A stretch of 64,000 nt of DNA from Bacteroidota bacterium (lineage in GTDB: Bacteria > Bacteroidota > Bacteroidia > Chitinophagales > Chitinophagaceae), in contig JAFDZS010000001.1 of the NCBI GenBank assembly GCA_018266775.1, forward strand, positions 248,001 through 312,000, written 5' to 3'. The stretch's first letter is position 1. Every line of letters begins with the position of its first letter. Of the stretch, positions 4,104 through 49,646 are shown in pieces. The notes beneath the pieces are model-generated. The model was not told the origin of the DNA, did not search any database, and saw only the letters and a program-made list of their open reading frames with translations. The position numbers were made by a program, and so were the translations under genes.

Positions 4104-4724
4104 TTAATAGTCGATCTTTTTAAGATAAAGGGTGCTGTATTTATTATAGCTGATGGATTGGGGAAATATTTTACGGTTTACCTGCTTCCAAACAATCCAG
4201 GCATTGGTGTTAAACCAAATCTGGTCTATCAGATGGCCGTTATAATGTGTTTCATAATAGTTCATGGGTATATCGCCAATATCTGTAGCTATGGTGTCTT
4301 TTACACCTTTTACAATAAAGTCTTCAATTTCTCCACTGTAAAAAGATGAGTAGGTGTCATTTACTGCTGCAGGGTTTTTGCAAATAAGGTTTGGGGCATT
4401 GTTAACGTACTGATACAAACCATCTGTGCGTTCTTTTAAATAATACACCAGTGTATCGGCGTCAATATCTTTTATCGTAAGCCATGTTTCACCGCCCAGA
4501 GTTTCCTCTGCAGTTGCTTTGTAAATAAGCGTATCTGAAGTGGCCAGTCCGCCGTTAAAAGTGTTATACGTATAATAGCGGTAGGTCCACACGGTGCCCA
4601 GTTTGGGTTTCTGGCCAGATGTTGTTCCCGATCCGGAGCCAGCGCCATCAGATGAGCCGTTCACTTCTTTTTGGCAGGAATATAAAGAGAGTAAAACCAG
4701 CAGGGTGATGATAAGACGATTCAA
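4104..4724 (-). CDS. Lipoprotein of unknown function
   Basis: A 206-residue protein I do not recognise. The N-terminus is a lipoprotein signal (MNRLIITLLVLLSLYSCQKE) with the lipidated cysteine at 17, followed by a Ser/Gly-rich linker (22-37) and a beta-rich domain. No catalytic motif is evident. The first codon is TTG; the hydrophobic signal starts right at it and no in-frame ATG fits, so TTG is accepted. It lies upstream of metF on the same strand, but metF has its own promoter. It is probably an envelope protein (inference from the lipobox only). Confidence 0.65.
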   Translation of the reverse strand: MNRLIITLLVLLSLYSCQKEVNGSSDGAGSGSGTTSGQKPKLGTVWTYRYYTYNTFNGGLATSDTLIYKATAEETLGGETWLTIKDIDADTLVYYLKERTDGLYQYVNNAPNLICKNPAAVNDTYSSFYSGEIEDFIVKGVKDTIATDIGDIPMNYYETHYNGHLIDQIWFNTNAWIVWKQVNRKIFPQSISYNKYSTLYLKKIDY

Positions 4725-9236: not shown

Positions 9237-9537
9237 GAAAGGCAAAAAAATCAAAAGCATTTTTTTAATATTGGTGCTGGCCATACAGATGTTACCTGTA
9301 CGGCAGGTGATCCGGTATTTTTTTATAGATAATCCGCTTACTGAAGAATTGGCGCATGATGCCAAGGGCGCCACTAAAAATTTCAGGGTGCTGGATGAAG
9401 ATAAAGTACTGCATCATTACGATGTGGCTGTAACACAGCACATCATCCTGCATAAAGAATCTTTTTTTCATTTTTCAGAAACGCTGCCTTCTCTGTACAG
9501 CGTGGAAGTTCCCACACCGCCTCCCAATGCTGCATGA
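9235..9537 (+). CDS. Small membrane-anchored protein of unknown function
   Basis: A 100-residue protein I do not recognise. Lys-rich residues 2-6 are followed by a hydrophobic helix (about 7-20, SIFLILVLAIQMLP), then a soluble part with several histidines (HHYD, HIILH, FFHF) and a Pro-rich end. The GTG start at 9235 lies 5 bases after the -7 box, so the mRNA would be leaderless or nearly so; the next in-frame Met would cut the helix. It precedes the SulP/carbonic anhydrase genes on the same strand, so a link to anion or bicarbonate handling is possible, but this is context only. Confidence 0.55.
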   Translation: MKGKKIKSIFLILVLAIQMLPVRQVIRYFFIDNPLTEELAHDAKGATKNFRVLDEDKVLHHYDVAVTQHIILHKESFFHFSETLPSLYSVEVPTPPPNAA

Positions 9538-43060: not shown

Positions 43061-43133
43061 GGTGCGGTAGCTCAGTCGGTAGAGCAAAGGACTGAAAATC
43101 CTTGTGTCGGCGGTTCGATCCCGCCCCACACCA
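43061..43133 (+). tRNA. tRNA-Phe (GAA)
   Basis: A 73-base cloverleaf: acceptor GGTGCGG, D arm GCTCAGTCGGTAGAGC, anticodon arm AAGGA-CTGAAAA-TCCTT with anticodon GAA at 43094-43096, variable GTGTC, T arm GGCGG-TTCGATC-CCGCC, acceptor CCACACC and discriminator A. The CCA end is not encoded. One acceptor pair (C5 with A68) is a mismatch, which is unusual but leaves the other six pairs. A terminator follows at once. Confidence 0.93.
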
Positions 43134-43139
43134 CTTAAA

Positions 43140-43165: not shown

Positions 43166-43584
43166 GTTTATTGAAAACCAGTTTGTGGGCTATGTGAAGA
43201 GGTTTAGATTGATGAATATTTCTGTTAGTGAATCCTTGAGACAGTAAAATGATGGAAGTGGCATACACCTATATTGGCCACATAAGTATATAGGGTACAT
43301 AGGTAAATACACGAAGGCAGGAGGAAGATTGATGTATAATTTATGTTGCTCACAGCGTCGCAGAGGCACGGATTGGGGCTTTTAGGTTTGCAGAGGACTT
43401 TGTTTGTGCGAATAACTCGGTATGTAGTGACCCGTGGGTAACAATGGTTTACCTTATTCATTTAATTGTTGCATTCGTGAGACACGAACGCAAGCGGAGA
43501 ATTTTAATTAGATATGAATGTCTGTTCATTAAGCATGGAACCGGGACTCGAAATAAAATTATCCAATAAGCAACTTATTCTAAG
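43166..43584. other. Gene-free left border of the accessory cassette
   Basis: About 420 bases with no credible gene. It contains the left copy of the inverted repeat (43472-43497) and otherwise unremarkable sequence. It separates tRNA-Phe from the FRG-TPR gene. Confidence 0.5.
43472..43497 (+). repeat. Left copy of the cassette-flanking inverted repeat
   Basis: Its reverse complement matches 49531-49556 at 23 of 26 bases. Inside it TTCGTG-AGA-CACGAA is a small palindrome, so it may be a REP-like element. Confidence 0.5.
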
Positions 43585-45450
43585 TTATTCAATTTCTTTT
43601 TTTAGTTTTTTAAAGTCTGATTCGGAAATTTTATAATTTTTATAAAGGTTTAAATCTGCATAATCATTATAAAACTCTTTCCAAAATTCCTGAATGCTGT
43701 CAAATTCGTTTATAGATATCCGGTAATTTTCAATAGCCTTCAATTTGTCTCCTTTGCACAAATAGTAGTGCCCCATACTTTTATTACCAAAATCTTTGCA
43801 ACCTAATTCAATAGCTTTGGTTATGTTTTGTTCAGCATCATTCAGATTTTTTACACTTAAATAACAGAACCCAATATTGTTAAATGCTTGTGCATAATAT
43901 TCCTGATTTAATTGTATGCATTGAGACAAGTACTCCTGTGCTTTTCCGATTTTGCCTAACTTAAAAAATACCACTCCTAAAAAATTACAGCATTCATCGT
44001 TTTTACTATTAATTTCAAAGCCTTTGCTGAAACACTCTTCAGCCTGCTTAAGCTGTTTCAATTTTAAATAACAATGACCCATATGACAAACAGCACTATC
44101 ATCTTTCGGATTAATTTCAAAAGCTTTTGAGAATTTAGTCAGAGCAATTTTATAGTTTTTCAAGTTAAAATTTACTTCCCCCAAGCCAAACCATAGATCT
44201 GCGTCATTTTTATCTATGGTTTGCCCTAATTTAAAATACTTAAGAGCTAATTCAAACTTATCGGTTATATTATACAAATTAGCCAGATTATTAATAGGCT
44301 TTATATTTTTCTTATCCAATGTCATTGCTTTTTTATAATTAGCAATGGCCTGATTAAAGTCTGTCGTTCTGCCACCTTTAATAAATTTATCTTCGTATGC
44401 AATGCCCCTATTATACCATAAATCAGCATCTTTCGGTTTAAGTTTTATTGCTGAAGAAAAAGATATAATTGCGTCTTCATAATTTTTATAGATAGTAAGA
44501 TAAATGTACCCTCTTTCGAAAAAAGCTTCAGCGAGATTTTTATCCAATTCAATAGCTTTTGAATAATATTCGACTGCGTTTTTATAAAGGCCTAAATCAT
44601 CGTTTTGTAACTTGGCCTTTTGATGCGAAACTTTTCCCATCTGATAGTAATCAAAAGGGTTTTTCATTTTATAACTTCTTTTTGCATTGTTTGCCTGCAG
44701 ATAGCCAAGAAAATCAGGATAAATGGATTCCTCATGTATGCCAGCCACTATACCCAACTCAGACATAATATTTTCTTTTGCCATCTTATCAATAATAATC
44801 TCAAAATCTATCTGCTCATTTTCTATTATGCCTTTACTATTAAAAATGAATATACTTTCCTGCTTAATTATTCTTGAATTAGAGTGGTAAGGGCGGTAGG
44901 TTTGAATTTTGTCTTTTAACTGGTTTAATATATCACCAATTTTCTTTGTATTCTCTATATCACCCCATTCTTTAAAATCTACAATTTCATTGAAAATAGA
45001 TCGCTTGTTATAATTCATACAATACACTTTACCATCTTCACCATTAATTCCAGCATAATCAGAGGCTGCCATGTATAAAGCAACAAGTGAACTATAACTA
45101 AAATCAATTAATAGTGTTGATGCCCCAAAGTGTTGCATTTCTGCGAGCAAACGTAAATCGCTCATTCCTTTGATAACAGGATGCGTGTCTTCCCGCTTTC
45201 TCGCCTCTGAGATGCTATCCTCCAGGTAAAGAATAATTTCGTCTGAATTAATTGTAGCGTCTGGATATCCGCTGCTTTTTTTGGCATCACTTAATCTTCT
45301 AACTACTCCGGATGTTACGGGCCATTGCGCATTCGCTTGTCCTCTAAAAATATACTTACTCAGATTGTCGCCTTGTGAATTAATTGAGTTAATTGCGTCT
45401 ACATATTCATTTAGCGTTTTAATTGGCATTTTTAAATAGGCTTTGACCAT
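43585..45450 (-). CDS. FRG-domain protein with TPR repeats
   Basis: A 621-residue, probably cytoplasmic protein. The FRG domain is N-terminal: F35-R36-G37 in YIFRGQANAQWP, then LLAEMQHFGASTLLIDFS (101-118) with ALYMAA, and RIIKQESIFIF (193-203). From about 285 to 600 there are roughly nine tetratricopeptide repeats (for example AVEYYSKAIELDKNLAEAFF). FRG domains are frequent in phage-defence and toxin loci, but their biochemical activity is not established to my knowledge. TPRs usually bind partners or sense ligands. It lies 266 bases downstream of the STAND NTPase on the same strand, in the same A+T-rich island. Confidence 0.78.
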   Translation of the reverse strand: MVKAYLKMPIKTLNEYVDAINSINSQGDNLSKYIFRGQANAQWPVTSGVVRRLSDAKKSSGYPDATINSDEIILYLEDSISEARKREDTHPVIKGMSDLRLLAEMQHFGASTLLIDFSYSSLVALYMAASDYAGINGEDGKVYCMNYNKRSIFNEIVDFKEWGDIENTKKIGDILNQLKDKIQTYRPYHSNSRIIKQESIFIFNSKGIIENEQIDFEIIIDKMAKENIMSELGIVAGIHEESIYPDFLGYLQANNAKRSYKMKNPFDYYQMGKVSHQKAKLQNDDLGLYKNAVEYYSKAIELDKNLAEAFFERGYIYLTIYKNYEDAIISFSSAIKLKPKDADLWYNRGIAYEDKFIKGGRTTDFNQAIANYKKAMTLDKKNIKPINNLANLYNITDKFELALKYFKLGQTIDKNDADLWFGLGEVNFNLKNYKIALTKFSKAFEINPKDDSAVCHMGHCYLKLKQLKQAEECFSKGFEINSKNDECCNFLGVVFFKLGKIGKAQEYLSQCIQLNQEYYAQAFNNIGFCYLSVKNLNDAEQNITKAIELGCKDFGNKSMGHYYLCKGDKLKAIENYRISINEFDSIQEFWKEFYNDYADLNLYKNYKISESDFKKLKKEIE

Positions 45451-45716
45451 ATATTTAATAATTGGTAATGAGATTAGGGTGAATTGTTTATTATTATATA
45501 TAAGATATTCTAAATTATTTTATTTTTTTAATAAATATAAAGAGAAACAGGTGTTTATTAGTTGGAATGTGGGTTTTATCCGATGGTGGGGGTTGTGAAT
45601 ATAACAGATAGTATTTTGAGGAAAAATGATCAATGCTACCCAATTAATATGAAAGTAACACAGGGAATTATGTCCTAAGCAATTGGGTTTATGTCTGAAA
45701 ATGATCGTTTCTTGAA
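45451..45716. other. Spacer between the STAND NTPase and FRG-TPR genes
   Basis: 266 very A+T-rich bases; no exact -7 box and no terminator-like hairpin found by eye. Whether the FRG-TPR gene has its own promoter is therefore open. Confidence 0.35.
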
Positions 45717-47816
45717 TTATTGAATCTCTGTTGGTGGTTTTTTTATTGTAAACACTCCGTGTAGCAAATCCGTTGTTGCTCCAGTTTTTTTATCTACATA
45801 ATACACAAAATATCTAGGACTTGTATTGTTAAAAACATCTAATTTATCGTTCTTGATTGTAAATGTTTTAGTGATTCCCTGAAATTTTAATGATTGCAGT
45901 GAAACTTCATCCATCGGGTATTTACCATTATTAAAAAGAACTTTCACCCTTATCCAACCATCCTCTGAGTTTTGAATTGTTGGAATATCAAATGAGAATT
46001 TGTAGCCAGATTGTTTAATGTCTTTGGAACTAATTGATCCGTCCGGATTAGCCATATTTAAAATTTTAAAATTGGATATATCTATTTTGGGCAATGATTT
46101 TATTGCTGTATTGGCATTAAGTTTAGCTAATTCTGCATTAGCAGATGATAGATTTTTTTCCAATTCTTCATTCTGATCACTCAAATAATTGGTTTTATCA
46201 ATAAGAGCTTGCAAATCTTCACGTAATGTTAGACCCACCTGAAAAAATGAATCTAGTGATTTTTTTTGTCGCTTAATAGTAATGTTATAATCTTTAATGG
46301 CTTGTTCATTCATTGCGAGATTTTCAACTTTGACTGTTTCAGGGATTGGTTTATTATTTGTAATTAAATTATTCAATTGAGTAATTGAATCTTTAGCGAA
46401 CTGAATGGCTAATTTTGAAGCATTCAATTGCTTTTCTAACCCTTGCGCCGTTTTATCATTTACAAAATTTATATAAATCCTGAAAATAAAAATTGCTAAG
46501 GAAATTATTATCAAACTTGCGACTACTCCAATCGTTAAAGTTATTTTCTTTGCTTTAGTCGCCGATTTTTTCAAATCTATGGCCTGCTTTTCTATTTTGG
46601 ACGCCTCCTCATGTATTTCTCTTGCAATTCGTTCAGTTTTGCTTTCAAAAATTTGTTTTGCCAATCTATCATGCACTATCTCTATTTCACTGTCGGCTTC
46701 CTTGCCCACAACACGGATAATTCCAGTATTCTCTGAAATTTGATAAGCGAGTTTCCTAAGGTATTCATCATTACCCGCAAACTTATCTATTGTAATTGTT
46801 AATCGCTTTCCAGATTCGTTTAAAAGCTTATTTTCTATCAAATACCTTAACTCGGGATACTTCTCAATACTTTCTTCGTAATAATGCCTGATCAGTTGGG
46901 TGTCGTTATGTTCTTCAACAAACTCAGGAGTAACCTCACTAAGTTGTTTTTGATGACTTTTTTTAAAAAGCTGAAAACAATAAATGCTAAGCACAAATGG
47001 ATCTACTTCTTTATTAACTAAATCTTTATCAACATTTCCACTTACCACACCATCGTCTCTCCAGAGTGCAGGAGTGCCAATTGTTTTAATAATTAATTCT
47101 GCGGTTTTCCTTTTAATACTACTTTGTGAAGGACAAATTATAGCATCTAAGGCCTGTGAAGGAGAAAATCTTTTCAGTCTATAACGCACATCATTTATAG
47201 AAGGAATTAATAGAGTAAAATCATCGAGAAATCCAATCCAATCCTGACGTAAACTAAAAACTACTTTAAAACTTGAAATATTATTAATATAATCCACAGT
47301 TTTTAGAGCATCGGGAAGACGAAGTTCGATTAATTCTGAAAGCTGAAACATGAAACGATGCAACTTAAATGGATCACTTTTGTGCCCAAGTGTAAAAAGT
47401 TCTTCAAACTGATCAAAAAACAGGACAGGCTTTATAAGACCTTTAAAAATGACATTCTTTGCTGCATAATCAATTAGAGATTGACCATCGGTAAAGTCAG
47501 GAATACTTTGATCCCAAATCTTTAATTCTTCCACAATTCTCCTTTGTACCGAAACCAACGGATCTTCATCTTTATTAGCAAAATTAATTCGTATATATAT
47601 TGGATGAAAATATTCTCTTTTGAGCTGAGGTAGTAATTTGGCATGTATGAGAGAGGTTTTACCAGTGCCCGAGGCTCCATACAAAACAGTAAGCTGATGC
47701 TTTCTGATCAGGTTAACAAGTTCTTCGACTTCAAGTGTCCTGCCAAAAAATATATCCTCATCATCTTCTTTAAATGAAAAGGGACCCCGGAATGGATTTT
47801 CAAAAATGGGTGTCAT
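45717..47816 (-). CDS. STAND-type P-loop NTPase with one membrane helix
   Basis: A 699-residue protein. NPFRGPFSFKEDDEDIFFGR at 7-26 is the typical entry to novel-STAND NTPases, Walker A is GASGTGKTS (47-55), and Walker B is VLFFDQFEELF (131-141, D135). A winged-helix-like part ends at IEIVHDRLAKQIFESK (378-393). Then comes a coiled coil/linker, a single transmembrane helix (about 424-447), a second coiled coil (~455-560) and a beta-rich C-terminal domain (~575-699). Usual STAND sensor repeats (WD40, TPR) are missing; the outer coiled coil and beta domain may sense instead. Its ATG overlaps the upstream TGA (ATGA, 47813-47816), so it is coupled to the SIR2-TIR gene. Confidence 0.8.
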   Translation of the reverse strand: MTPIFENPFRGPFSFKEDDEDIFFGRTLEVEELVNLIRKHQLTVLYGASGTGKTSLIHAKLLPQLKREYFHPIYIRINFANKDEDPLVSVQRRIVEELKIWDQSIPDFTDGQSLIDYAAKNVIFKGLIKPVLFFDQFEELFTLGHKSDPFKLHRFMFQLSELIELRLPDALKTVDYINNISSFKVVFSLRQDWIGFLDDFTLLIPSINDVRYRLKRFSPSQALDAIICPSQSSIKRKTAELIIKTIGTPALWRDDGVVSGNVDKDLVNKEVDPFVLSIYCFQLFKKSHQKQLSEVTPEFVEEHNDTQLIRHYYEESIEKYPELRYLIENKLLNESGKRLTITIDKFAGNDEYLRKLAYQISENTGIIRVVGKEADSEIEIVHDRLAKQIFESKTERIAREIHEEASKIEKQAIDLKKSATKAKKITLTIGVVASLIIISLAIFIFRIYINFVNDKTAQGLEKQLNASKLAIQFAKDSITQLNNLITNNKPIPETVKVENLAMNEQAIKDYNITIKRQKKSLDSFFQVGLTLREDLQALIDKTNYLSDQNEELEKNLSSANAELAKLNANTAIKSLPKIDISNFKILNMANPDGSISSKDIKQSGYKFSFDIPTIQNSEDGWIRVKVLFNNGKYPMDEVSLQSLKFQGITKTFTIKNDKLDVFNNTSPRYFVYYVDKKTGATTDLLHGVFTIKKPPTEIQ

Positions 47817-49099
47817 GCTATTATGTTTTTCGTTTCACTAAATAGTCGATCAAATCCACCATGATTTTCTCCAAACCGGAATTCGCTTTTAATTAGTTCG
47901 GGTAATTTATCTATATAATTCCTTTCGTTATCAACAAAATATGGAACAATATTTATTTTTTTATGTATATTAGAATGCGCTGCTACATCATTCCTAGCTT
48001 TTGCAGAGTACCACTCAATATCCCTGATATAATTCAAGTCACTGCTCAATGTGTTAAAAAGCCCTTCTGATATTACACTTAAAAGCATTTTAGTTTTAGG
48101 ATTCATTATATAATCCTTGATCTCATTTTCATGGCTTCCAATAGTTTGAGTTTCCTCATCAAAATAAGTTACTACACCCTGTTCCCTAAACTTATGATAT
48201 AAACTCTTTGCAACAACTAAATCATGCGATTTACTATAACTAATAAATATCTGGCTGTTTTCATATTTGTTTTTAAATTCTTCTTTTTTAAGTGCCTTTT
48301 GATAAAATTTATCAACAAAATCATCAACAGGAGAAGTATGTATGAGTTTAATATTATGCTTTGCAAAAAAGAACTCCTGGTACTTTAATTTTGTCGGGTG
48401 ATCATTTACTATATATATTGGTCTTGATGAAAATGGGTTATTTGATAAAACACGTATACAGTACCTCATAAACAAATCCGGGAAATCACATCCAATAAAG
48501 AGGAGTGTTTTATTTTGTAAGTAAGACAAAAGGGAATTATCTGAACTATGCTTAGGTGAATTCGCTAATGAATACATTGATTCTAATAATTCTTCGTCAT
48601 TTATTGCACAAAGTGGGCTGTCAAGATTATCAAATAGATATATTATCTTTCGCAGACCATTATTAAAATTAATGCTTGGCAAGCCATGCATCGTTATTGT
48701 ATCGTTTTTATAGATTTCTACCTCTTCATTATTATTTTTTCTAAATTCTGTTTCAAATTCTTTAAAAACATTTGCTATCAGGAATATTTTAAAATATTTC
48801 AGATTTGCTAATTGAGTTAAGAATTTTAGTCTTTTCTTTTTTTCATTTAGTAACTTATAGCAACCTAGGAGGCTATTATAATCGAATTCAGGTATTGCTA
48901 AAGGGAGCTCACTCAACAAGGCAGGTGGTTCTGGCCATTCTTCTGATGGATAAAAAGATTCACGAATTATATATTCATGAATATTTATTGAATTCCCTTG
49001 TTCGGTAGGCACTTTAAATAATTCACAACCTATTATAGGAATTAGATTTCCTGAAGTATACTTATGGATCAAGTTATCAATAACAGAATCGATATTCAT
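47813..49099 (-). CDS. SIR2-like and TIR domain fusion protein
   Basis: A 428-residue protein. Residues ~10-265 look like a SIR2-type Rossmann domain: LIPIIGCELFKV (19-30) at the nucleotide loop, a His-Gly at 138-139 (ITMHGLP) in the position of the SIR2 catalytic histidine, and LLFIGCDFPDLFMRYCIRVL (199-218), typical of SIR2-like defence proteins. The usual GAGxS is altered to IIGCE. Residues ~281-405 are a TIR domain: SQIFISYSKSHD, TYFDEETQTIG and YIRDIEWYSAKA, with E362 as candidate NADase glutamate. NAD+ cleavage is the expected activity (family knowledge). It is the first gene of the cassette. Confidence 0.75.
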   Translation of the reverse strand: MNIDSVIDNLIHKYTSGNLIPIIGCELFKVPTEQGNSINIHEYIIRESFYPSEEWPEPPALLSELPLAIPEFDYNSLLGCYKLLNEKKKRLKFLTQLANLKYFKIFLIANVFKEFETEFRKNNNEEVEIYKNDTITMHGLPSINFNNGLRKIIYLFDNLDSPLCAINDEELLESMYSLANSPKHSSDNSLLSYLQNKTLLFIGCDFPDLFMRYCIRVLSNNPFSSRPIYIVNDHPTKLKYQEFFFAKHNIKLIHTSPVDDFVDKFYQKALKKEEFKNKYENSQIFISYSKSHDLVVAKSLYHKFREQGVVTYFDEETQTIGSHENEIKDYIMNPKTKMLLSVISEGLFNTLSSDLNYIRDIEWYSAKARNDVAAHSNIHKKINIVPYFVDNERNYIDKLPELIKSEFRFGENHGGFDRLFSETKNIIA

Positions 49100-49646
49100 A
49101 AAAGTGGAAAGGTTTAGAGTTGGGTAAATGTATATTGCAGTTATAGCTGCTTAAATTTAGTCAGTTATGATGGATACAGGTATACGTAGAAGCCGAAAAT
49201 TAAATTGCGGTTTTTACGTAAGAATTATTAGTAAAAGATTAATTAAGCAGAGTAAGGTTTGCAATTTTTATTGAACTAATTTTTTTTCTTTTTAAAGAAT
49301 ATGCATGGGAGTTTGTTTGGCTTTTGATAGGTGTAAAGTACTGCTGAAGATGATAGATAAAAAAACAGGTAATAATAAGGTTGCGGGGAGGTTTAGGGAT
49401 CGAAAGGGGTAATAATAGGGTTGCTCGATGAAAGGGAAGTATTTAAGCTGGGGTCTTCTGGATTAGTTGGTTTTGGGGTTGTGCAGACGCTAAGGAAAAT
49501 TAGCTTTCATTGACCACCCAAATATAGCTTCCGCCTGCGTTCGTCCCTCACGAATGTACATATATAACTCTTTATCTGTTCCGCTAACATTAAGTCATAT
49601 CACTCAAATTCAAACCTGTTTCCTGTATGAATAATGAGAAGTCAAT
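49100..49646. other. Gene-free right border of the accessory cassette
   Basis: 547 bases without a credible gene. Contents: a weak -7-like TACATTTA upstream of the SIR2-TIR gene, two 17-bp direct repeats of GGTAATAATAAGGTTGC (49368-49384 and, with one change, 49408-49424), and the right inverted repeat. No integrase, att-like duplicate of the tRNA end, or transposase was found. Confidence 0.5.
49531..49556 (+). repeat. Right copy of the cassette-flanking inverted repeat
   Basis: Starts CCGCCTGCGTTCGT and ends CTCACGAATG; matches the reverse complement of 43472-43497 at 23 of 26 bases. Confidence 0.5.

What the first reader, a model, noticed from the sequence alone, without database searches (positions are those of the whole stretch)
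43585..49099. Candidate new defence cassette: SIR2-TIR fusion, membrane STAND NTPase, FRG-TPR protein
Three minus-strand genes form an A+T-rich island right after tRNA-Phe. Seen: TIR motifs plus a SIR2-like region in one protein, a Walker A/B STAND NTPase overlapping it as ATGA, and an FRG-TPR protein 266 bases on. Known: SIR2 and TIR domains deplete NAD+ in Thoeris, Avs and related systems, and STAND NTPases act as sensors. Inference: the NTPase senses infection at the membrane and the SIR2-TIR protein executes. I do not recognise this exact three-part combination as a named system.
Basis: partly seen in the sequence, partly recalled or inferred. Interest (0 to 1): 0.8.

Follow-up and report, generated by a model that had tools for sequence, protein, structure and literature searches.

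The report
Membrane immune receptor with TIR partner
Two bacterial genes found side by side in many phyla appear to make a membrane-anchored immune receptor and a partner that would destroy the cell's NAD+; the partner's other, sirtuin-like half looks enzymatically dead and so probably serves as the coupling piece.

Summary
In detail: three minus-strand genes in a 32% G+C island behind tRNA-Phe. The first two are a real unit. The SIR2-TIR gene has an nSTAND1 gene directly downstream in 37 of 38 pattern-found loci and 5 of 5 order-level matches; the exception is a fragment. Divergence of the two proteins is correlated (r 0.95, 0 of 2000 permutations, n=29). The FRG-TPR gene is not part of the unit: no similar FRG ORF in 59 locus entries.

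The TIR Glu is invariant (34 of 34; register checked against seven other TIRs), but the SIR2 catalytic His is absent in 34 of 34 members and 15 of 15 relatives. In those relatives the TIR slot holds a TIR-like domain or the adaptor EAD11. The SIR2-like domain is therefore probably a dead adaptor, and TIR the enzyme. The STAND protein usually has one predicted TM helix (29 of 33).

Best reading: a two-gene, membrane-anchored, NLR-like defence system with TIR output. No PADLOC v2 protein model describes the pair. Defence itself is inferred.

The parts
47813..49099 (-). SIR2-like/TIR protein (P0001, 428 aa), first gene of the pair
48275..49099 (-). SIR2-like domain, residues 1-275; the catalytic His position is Phe156
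   Evidence: fold match to SPARSA and DSR2 SIR2; His column census, ThsA mapping
47816..48262 (-). TIR domain, residues 280-428; invariant D314, E362, W363
   Evidence: Pfam TIR_2, fold match to SPARTA TIR Z 16.3, column census
48014..48016 (-). codon of Glu362, candidate TIR catalytic glutamate
   Evidence: 34 of 34 in A3; same column as the Glu of 7 of 7 other TIR domains
45717..47816 (-). nSTAND1 NTPase receptor (P0002, 699 aa), second gene, ATGA overlap with the first
47655..47678 (-). Walker A, residues 47-54 GASGTGKT
   Evidence: sequence; S49, G50, G52, K53 invariant in 33 sequences
47400..47423 (-). Walker B, residues 132-139 LFFDQFEE
   Evidence: sequence; D135-E139 invariant in 33 sequences
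46482..46538 (-). predicted transmembrane helix, residues 427-445
   Evidence: mean hydropathy 2.81 over 19 residues
45717..46481 (-). C-terminal part: long helix/coiled coil, then a small beta region; candidate sensor beyond the membrane
   Evidence: model m1602d4fbe18a, low confidence here, mostly pLDDT under 50
43585..45450 (-). FRG-TPR protein (P0003); neighbour in the island, not part of the conserved pair
   Evidence: Pfam FRG + TPR, PADLOC PDC-S15; no similar FRG ORF at the other loci
43472..43498 (+). 27-nt inverted repeat, left arm, bounds the island
49530..49556 (-). 27-nt inverted repeat, right arm, bounds the island
43061..43134 (+). tRNA-Phe(gaa); gene content beyond it varies in relatives

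Best explanation
The first two genes are a two-protein, NLR-like immune module. P0002 is the receptor: a cytoplasmic nSTAND1 NTPase, one membrane helix, and a variable C-terminal part on the far side (here a coiled coil plus a small beta region; WD40 propellers in many relatives). P0001 is the output: a catalytically dead SIR2-like domain that couples to the receptor, followed by a TIR domain. On sensing infection or envelope damage the STAND ring assembles with ATP, gathers P0001 copies through the SIR2-like domain, and so brings TIR domains together to cleave NAD+ and stop or kill the cell before phage is released. Shown here: a conserved and co-diverging gene pair, tight spacing, intact NTPase motifs, invariant TIR Glu and Trp, loss of the SIR2 His in every member examined, a different C-terminal slot in relatives, a predicted TM helix. 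Inferred: physical contact, assembly, NADase activity, topology, trigger and anti-phage function. FRG-TPR is a separate island gene.
For: Pair: 37 of 38 pattern-found loci have nSTAND1 immediately downstream on the same strand; 5 of 5 order-level matches do. Spacing is -20 to +19 nt in 36 of 37, with a 4-nt overlap in 12 (the start nearest the stop was chosen). Distance matrices correlate at 0.953 (SIR2-like vs STAND) and 0.930 (TIR vs STAND), 0 of 2000 permutations as high, n=29. TIR: E362, W363, D314 in 34 of 34; E362 falls in the Glu column of 7 of 7 other TIR domains taken from the loci; fold Z 16.3 to SPARTA TIR. SIR2: profile alignment puts ThsA His152 (YKMHGD) opposite YNLfG; that column is never His in 34+15 sequences, and the Asn112 column is Asn in 4 of 34 and 6 of 15. 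Wider family: of 28 further nSTAND1 places read (of 35 listed), 25 have a SIR2-like gene beside them: 15 of 15 best and 10 of 13 lower ones. Among the first 15 the C-terminal slot is EAD11 in 7 and TIR_2-like in 7. Receptor: nSTAND1 in 33 of 33, WD40 in 15 of 33; core near Orc/Cdc6, NLRP3 and Apaf-1, Z 14.7-16.9; TM helix in the expected place in 29 of 33. Setting: low-G+C island at a tRNA site with variable content in relatives, defence-type genes in 3 of 8.
Against: No experiment. By the alignment P0001 itself is one of the four members that keep an Asn in the SIR2 Asn column. P0001 is divergent: an extra residue before E362 and Asp for the usual Gly157. HMMER's own alignment to solved TIRs places the family's Glu-Trp one step off (opposite the residue before their Trp); MAFFT with seven other TIRs gives the register used here. 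No relative was found in viral contigs, nor of P0001 in plasmids. A TM helix at this place is common among nSTAND1 proteins of the order (13 of 21), so it is not special to this pair. The C-terminal part of P0002 is modelled with low confidence, so neither a sensor fold nor its side of the membrane is shown. The scan pattern came from the SIR2-like motif of members already seen to be paired, so unpaired relatives without that motif could be missed. Three of 13 lower-ranked nSTAND1 loci have no SIR2-like gene in reach.
Confidence: 0.6

Rival explanations
1. Both halves of P0001 are NADases, so SIR2 and TIR act together.
For: The SIR2 fold is well supported; four of 34 members, P0001 among them, keep an Asn in the Asn column.
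Against: The catalytic His column holds F, L, M or Y in 34 of 34 and F, L or T in 15 of 15 relatives; the second Gly of the GAG motif is missing in 33 of 34 and 12 of 15.
Confidence: 0.06
2. The pair is an NLR-like signalling or self/non-self system that does not act mainly on phage, for example a sensor of envelope damage, rival bacteria or development.
For: Predicted membrane placement; in one relative (L041) the third gene of the row carries TssR domains, named after a type VI secretion component; no copies in viral contigs.
Against: TIR output, a low-G+C tRNA-site island, and defence-type genes at the same site in 3 of 8 relatives fit anti-phage use better.
Confidence: 0.2
3. All three genes are one cassette, with FRG-TPR as a second NAD+-linked output.
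For: Same strand, same low G+C, inside the same inverted repeats; Frg is described as an ART-superfamily possible NADase (PMC9503650, passages); a TPR-like protein follows the STAND gene in several distant operons.
Against: 266-nt gap; no similar FRG ORF in 59 locus entries (several are short, and four places are held more than once); FRG occurs once in this genome; in 297 other genomes P0003 has two matches, both over the TPR part only.
Confidence: 0.1
4. The TIR is a scaffold, not an enzyme, and the pair works by assembly alone.
For: In the relatives with a TIR-like slot the Glu column is not conserved, so TIR-like domains without it occur in this setting.
Against: In this subfamily D314, E362 and W363 are invariant in 34 of 34, although mean TIR identity among 29 of them is 32%.
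Confidence: 0.1

Closest known systems
nSTAND1 conflict systems (Pfam PF20703; PMC8195603 and PMC10907252, passages read)
   Same: Same NTPase family, variable C-terminal sensor, effector or adaptor in the protein or nearby; one passage lists TIR and SIR2 among effectors that replace EAD10.
   Different: The passages read (12 of 26 and 12 of 15 places) describe EAD adaptors, N-terminal TIR or peptidase fusions and DGR-diversified sensors; none describes a separate SIR2-like/TIR gene coupled to nSTAND1.
Avs5 / SIR2-STAND
   Same: SIR2 fold linked to a STAND NTPase; AVAST5 filament 9nc9 is at Z 16.1.
   Different: SIR2 and STAND in one protein (entry title and recall), no TIR; here two genes, TIR added, SIR2 His lost.
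Thoeris (ThsA/ThsB)
   Same: SeThsA and ThsA are the best PDB sequence matches of the relatives' SIR2 region, and a TIR is present.
   Different: TIR fused to the SIR2-like domain, no SLOG family detected, STAND receptor present, SIR2 residues lost.
SPARTA / SPARSA
   Same: Best structural matches of the TIR (Z 16.3) and SIR2 (Z 19.1) halves.
   Different: There the NADase goes with APAZ and a short Argonaute; here with a STAND NTPase.
TIR-type plant receptors and Apaf-1/NLRP3-type hubs
   Same: TIR fold near RUN1 (Z 15.2) and hub near NLRP3 and Apaf-1 (Z 15.1 and 14.7).
   Different: Output and hub are separate proteins here, and the hub is predicted to cross the membrane.

Membership tests
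nSTAND1 NTPases (Pfam PF20703) | Profile match over the curated cut-off with Walker A/B | tested here: met
   99.5 bits vs 27.1; core motif residues invariant in 33 sequences
SIR2 NADases (ThsA, DSR2 type) | Catalytic Asn and His | tested here: not met
   His 0 of 34 and 0 of 15; Asn 4 of 34 (P0001 included) and 6 of 15 (ThsA mapping)
SIR2 fold | Structural similarity over the domain | tested here: met
   SPARSA Z 19.1, 250 residues, 3.3 A; DSR2 Z 18.7, 238 residues, 4.4 A
TIR NADases | TIR fold with conserved catalytic Glu | tested here: met
   fold Z 16.3, 136 residues; E362 34 of 34, register
TIR NADases | NAD+ cleavage | not testable with these tools
   needs an enzyme assay
Thoeris | ThsA with SIR2 plus SLOG/STALD, and a separate ThsB TIR protein (definition recalled) | tested here: not met
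   No SLOG family in Pfam for the 34 members; two PADLOC ThsA models reach E<=1e-3 in 7 (best 6e-6) and 1 of 34; TIR fused to SIR2
Avs5 (SIR2-STAND) | SIR2 and STAND in one polypeptide | tested here: not met
   two ORFs in the 37 paired loci
SPARTA/SPARSA | APAZ domain and short Argonaute | tested here: inconclusive
   no such match for the three proteins; other neighbours were not scanned
Any PADLOC-DB v2 system | A protein model that describes either member of the pair over its length | tested here: not met
   P0001, P0002: only weak partial hits (SAVED_TIR, PDC-S66, Cas6). Relatives hit TIR-type models and the unnamed candidate PDC-S66 in 31 of 34 (best 3e-12; in P0001 52 residues only); STANDs hit HEAT-ARM_XIII in 9 of 33. 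PADLOC's system rules were not run.
FRG / PADLOC PDC-S15 | FRG domain over cut-off | tested here: met
   P0003, 52.0 bits vs 25; PDC-S15 E 1e-28

The most novel reading that the evidence does not exclude
A bacterial transmembrane, split NLR: an nSTAND1 receptor that reads the far side of the inner membrane and drives TIR enzymes inside through a dedicated pseudo-sirtuin adaptor. The dead SIR2-like domain is the constant coupling piece of a plug-in family whose second slot holds a TIR, a TIR-like scaffold or the EAD11 adaptor.
Probability: 0.4. Interest if true: 0.78.

Novelty: new variant of a known kind. Interest (0 to 1): 0.62.

Why it matters
If right, a sirtuin fold has been kept, at about 32% mean identity (29 pairs) and in about eight phyla by record title (mostly MAGs), as a non-enzymatic adaptor. 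That would change how SIR2 hits in defence loci are read. It would also give a simple two-gene system in which membrane-side sensing by an NLR-type hub can be tested directly.

Tried and rejected
Three-gene system: rejected as above. tRNA-linked integration with a duplicated tRNA end: the last 10 bases of tRNA-Phe occur once in the window, so no att duplication was seen. Plasmid copies: none for P0001; the Aromatoleum member (L072) has one relative, on a 2.6-Mb Paraburkholderia caribensis record, also followed by nSTAND1. Phage copies: weak partial matches in four records of two Erwinia phages (E 5e-3); viral contigs: 12 pattern matches, none a relative.

A first TM comparison suggested that TM helices mark split systems; it used wrong offsets for N-terminally extended proteins. 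Corrected: 13 of 21 nSTAND1 places have one. In that set of 21 places (12 of 60 genomes, E<=1e-10), 4, own included, have a full SIR2-like gene upstream within the 1.5-kb flank, so SIR2-like/TIR is one of several partners; an upstream ORF looks CHAT-like at L133 and TIR-like at L120 (motifs read by eye and from memory). Other EAD11-bearing ORFs near the seven EAD11 relatives: none. Empty-site test: no clean empty site, see report. PDB sequence search with P0001 or P0002 alone gave nothing useful.

Literature: nSTAND1+TIR+SIR2 found one paper (passages of it read); SIR2-TIR+STAND none (32); broad terms (44) and five terms (45, six papers, of which I read passages of PMC9503650 only); nSTAND1+TIR two (48); SIR2/TIR phrases four (103; passages of one); six terms none (104). 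eLife 2020 PMC7159879 passages name neither SIR2 nor nSTAND. Nothing I saw describes the pair; papers seen only as listings may. J. Bacteriol. 2020 e00365-20, recalled as the likeliest place for an earlier mention, is not held.

Rows dropped before counts. A3 left out L066, L075, L077 (over-long ORFs), L085 (masked stretch), L088 (near copy of L084), L090 (split ORF), L094 (fragment); one search shows Glu-Trp in L066, L075, L077, L090 and L094, and Phe before the Gly in L066, L075, L077, L085 and L090. A4 (33 rows, L088 included) left out L059, L060, L063, L066, L073, L074, L075. One search used the 29 pairs present in both, L088 dropped. L060, L076 and L079 are the places of L002, L009 and L007 found again.
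Full report
Check of the observation. The stretch between two inverted repeats has 31.7% G+C against 43.6% and 40.5% in the flanks. Pfam gives nSTAND1 for P0002 and FRG plus TPRs for P0003 well over cut-off; for P0001, TIR_2 and SIR2_2 are both under cut-off. They become firm in the family: TIR_2 in 34 of 34 and SIR2_2 in 32 of 34 members at E<=0.01. An AlphaFold2 model of P0001 (mean pLDDT 79.7) matches the SIR2 domains of SPARSA (Z 19.1, 250 residues, 3.3 A) and DSR2 (Z 18.7, 238 residues, 4.4 A) and the TIR of SPARTA (Z 16.3, 136 residues). ThsA rows (Z 18.4 and less) run along the whole model at 11-13 A rmsd, so only part of each is a good fit. By Foldseek the five best chains are ThsA.

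The pair is real. In 396 genomes of the order, P0001 has five matches outside its own genome, in four genomes. The five best P0002 relatives outside the own genome are the genes beside them. A pattern scan of genome contigs with the alignment of these six gave 38 loci, in records titled Bacteroidota groups, Burkholderiales and other Pseudomonadota, Acidobacteria, Gemmatimonadetes, Myxococcales, Verrucomicrobiales, Nitrospirae and Aminicenantes, mostly MAGs. In 37 of 38 an nSTAND1 gene lies directly downstream on the same strand; the 38th (L094) is a 173-aa fragment with no STAND gene. Spacing is -20 to +19 nt in 36 of 37, the last being L085, which has a masked stretch; 12 overlap by 4 nt (the possible start nearest the stop was taken). 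Pairwise distances of the two proteins correlate at 0.95 over 29 pairs; shared ancestry of the hosts contributes, so this is support, not proof, of co-evolution.

The two halves of P0001 have different fates. In the TIR, D314, E362 and W363 are invariant in 34 of 34. E362 is the catalytic Glu if aligned with the usual WxxxE of TIRs (motif recalled). HMMER's alignments to solved TIRs place the pair differently, so I aligned the 34 members with seven other TIR domains from the loci: E362 falls in their Glu column in 7 of 7. In the SIR2-like half, a profile of relatives aligned to ThsA puts His152 opposite a hydrophobic residue and Asn112 in the T/N column (numbering counted from that alignment, the catalytic role recalled; the 8bto chain reads Ala at that Asn). 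The His column is F, L, M or Y in 34 of 34 and F, L or T in 15 of 15; the Asn is kept in 4 of 34, P0001 among them, and in 6 of 15. So the SIR2 domain is very probably not an NADase.

A wider family explains this. Of the 35 further nSTAND1 places, the next 15 by E-value were read wide: all have a SIR2-like gene upstream, 14 found by profile and L041 by reading the neighbour; at L044 other ORFs lie between and at L041 155 nt. Of 13 lower ones held as short loci, 10 have a SIR2-like gene beside them (at L030 downstream) and three do not. In the 15, the C-terminal slot is TIR_2-like in 7 and EAD11 in 7, and the Glu column is not conserved. The constant part beside nSTAND1 is the SIR2-like domain. 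I infer that it is the coupling module.

The receptor. P0002's model is confident for about residues 10-450 and poor beyond. The core matches Orc/Cdc6, archaeal ATPases, NLRP3 and Apaf-1 (Z 14.7-16.9). A hydrophobic helix follows the STAND arm in 29 of 33 relatives at the expected distance, and in 32 of 33 at any place past residue 380. In 21 nSTAND1 places of the order, 13 have it, so it belongs to the wider nSTAND1 family. C-terminal parts vary: WD40 in 15 of 33. If the helix spans the membrane once, these sensors face away from the cytoplasm; this is untested.

The third gene. No ORF similar to P0003 1-262 was found in 59 locus entries (phmmer, E<=10); some entries repeat a place and several are short, so absence is not complete. 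FRG occurs once in the genome. PMC9503650 (passages) calls Frg an ART-superfamily domain and possible NADase. P0003 is best seen as another candidate defence gene (PADLOC PDC-S15) in the same island.

The island. Of 11 relatives of the genus fetched beyond recQ, 8 reach tRNA-Phe, directly or after one or two genes. Up to five genes past the tRNA were compared: none resembles the window's genes, and only one small gene is shared, by L105 and L107. Three of the 8 carry defence-type genes there: a QatC-like protein (L103), a PLD-SNF2 helicase (L109) and a DpdF/UvrD-like helicase (L112) (7 proteins from 4 of these loci were scanned). A 27-nt inverted repeat bounds the window's island. The genome holds four copies at up to 3 mismatches; the other two form a second inverted pair 4.9 kb apart around an MmeI-type R-M gene, a membrane protein and an Mrr-type nuclease. 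A shorter pattern adds one weak single copy. The repeat is rare: 4 of 93 genus genomes and 3 of 394 family genomes have any, own included, against one match of the reversed control in each-genome counts of the 394. Copies in three relatives (G269, G397, G430) were not seen by eye to bound defence genes, and G430's two copies are in direct orientation; those of G710 were not read.

Judgement. The nSTAND1 family, TIR output, EAD adaptors and STAND-based bacterial immunity are known. New here, as far as the searches named above and PADLOC v2 show, is the two-gene SIR2-like/TIR plus nSTAND1 unit with a His-less SIR2 domain and an exchangeable output slot. The host is probably Ferruginibacter-like: a genome labelled same genus (G152) has the contig titled Ferruginibacter sp. 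(L076).

Noticed in passing
window 43472-43498(+) and 49530-49556(-); L113 (G000:C11:445000-460000) 4402-4428 and 9264-9290: A 27-nt hairpin-like repeat occurs four times in the genome at <=3 mismatches, as two inverted pairs; one bounds this island, the other an MmeI-type R-M gene, a membrane protein and an Mrr-type nuclease. In the window the only ORFs over 90 aa between the arms are the three genes.
   Followed up: partly
window 43061-43134; L102, L103, L105, L106, L107, L109, L111, L112: Genes past tRNA-Phe near recQ are almost all different in the eight relatives read; a QatC-like gene (L103), a PLD-SNF2 helicase (L109) and a DpdF/UvrD-like helicase (L112) suggest a defence hotspot of the genus.
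   Followed up: partly
L041 9607-12894; L048 4162-7989; also L046, L047, L050, L051, L054: In distant SIR2-like/nSTAND1 rows a third gene follows that looks exported (by eye); of two scanned, one has WD40 repeats (L048) and one TssR domains named after a type VI secretion component (L041).
   Followed up: partly
L058, L061, L062, L067, L078, L079: A patatin-like protein (GGGIRG motif, read by eye) lies within three genes of the pair in 6 of 28 loci, and the six are homologous to each other.
   Followed up: partly
L095 1201-3438 (G000:C20): The same genome has another SIR2_2 protein, with a P-loop region behind it by eye, whose His position reads Met.
   Followed up: no
L094 8127-8648; L090 1184-2807: A decayed and a split copy of the SIR2-TIR gene.
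   Followed up: no
L010 10675-11586: A 303-aa membrane-like protein 11 nt upstream of one pair, possibly a third component there.
   Followed up: no
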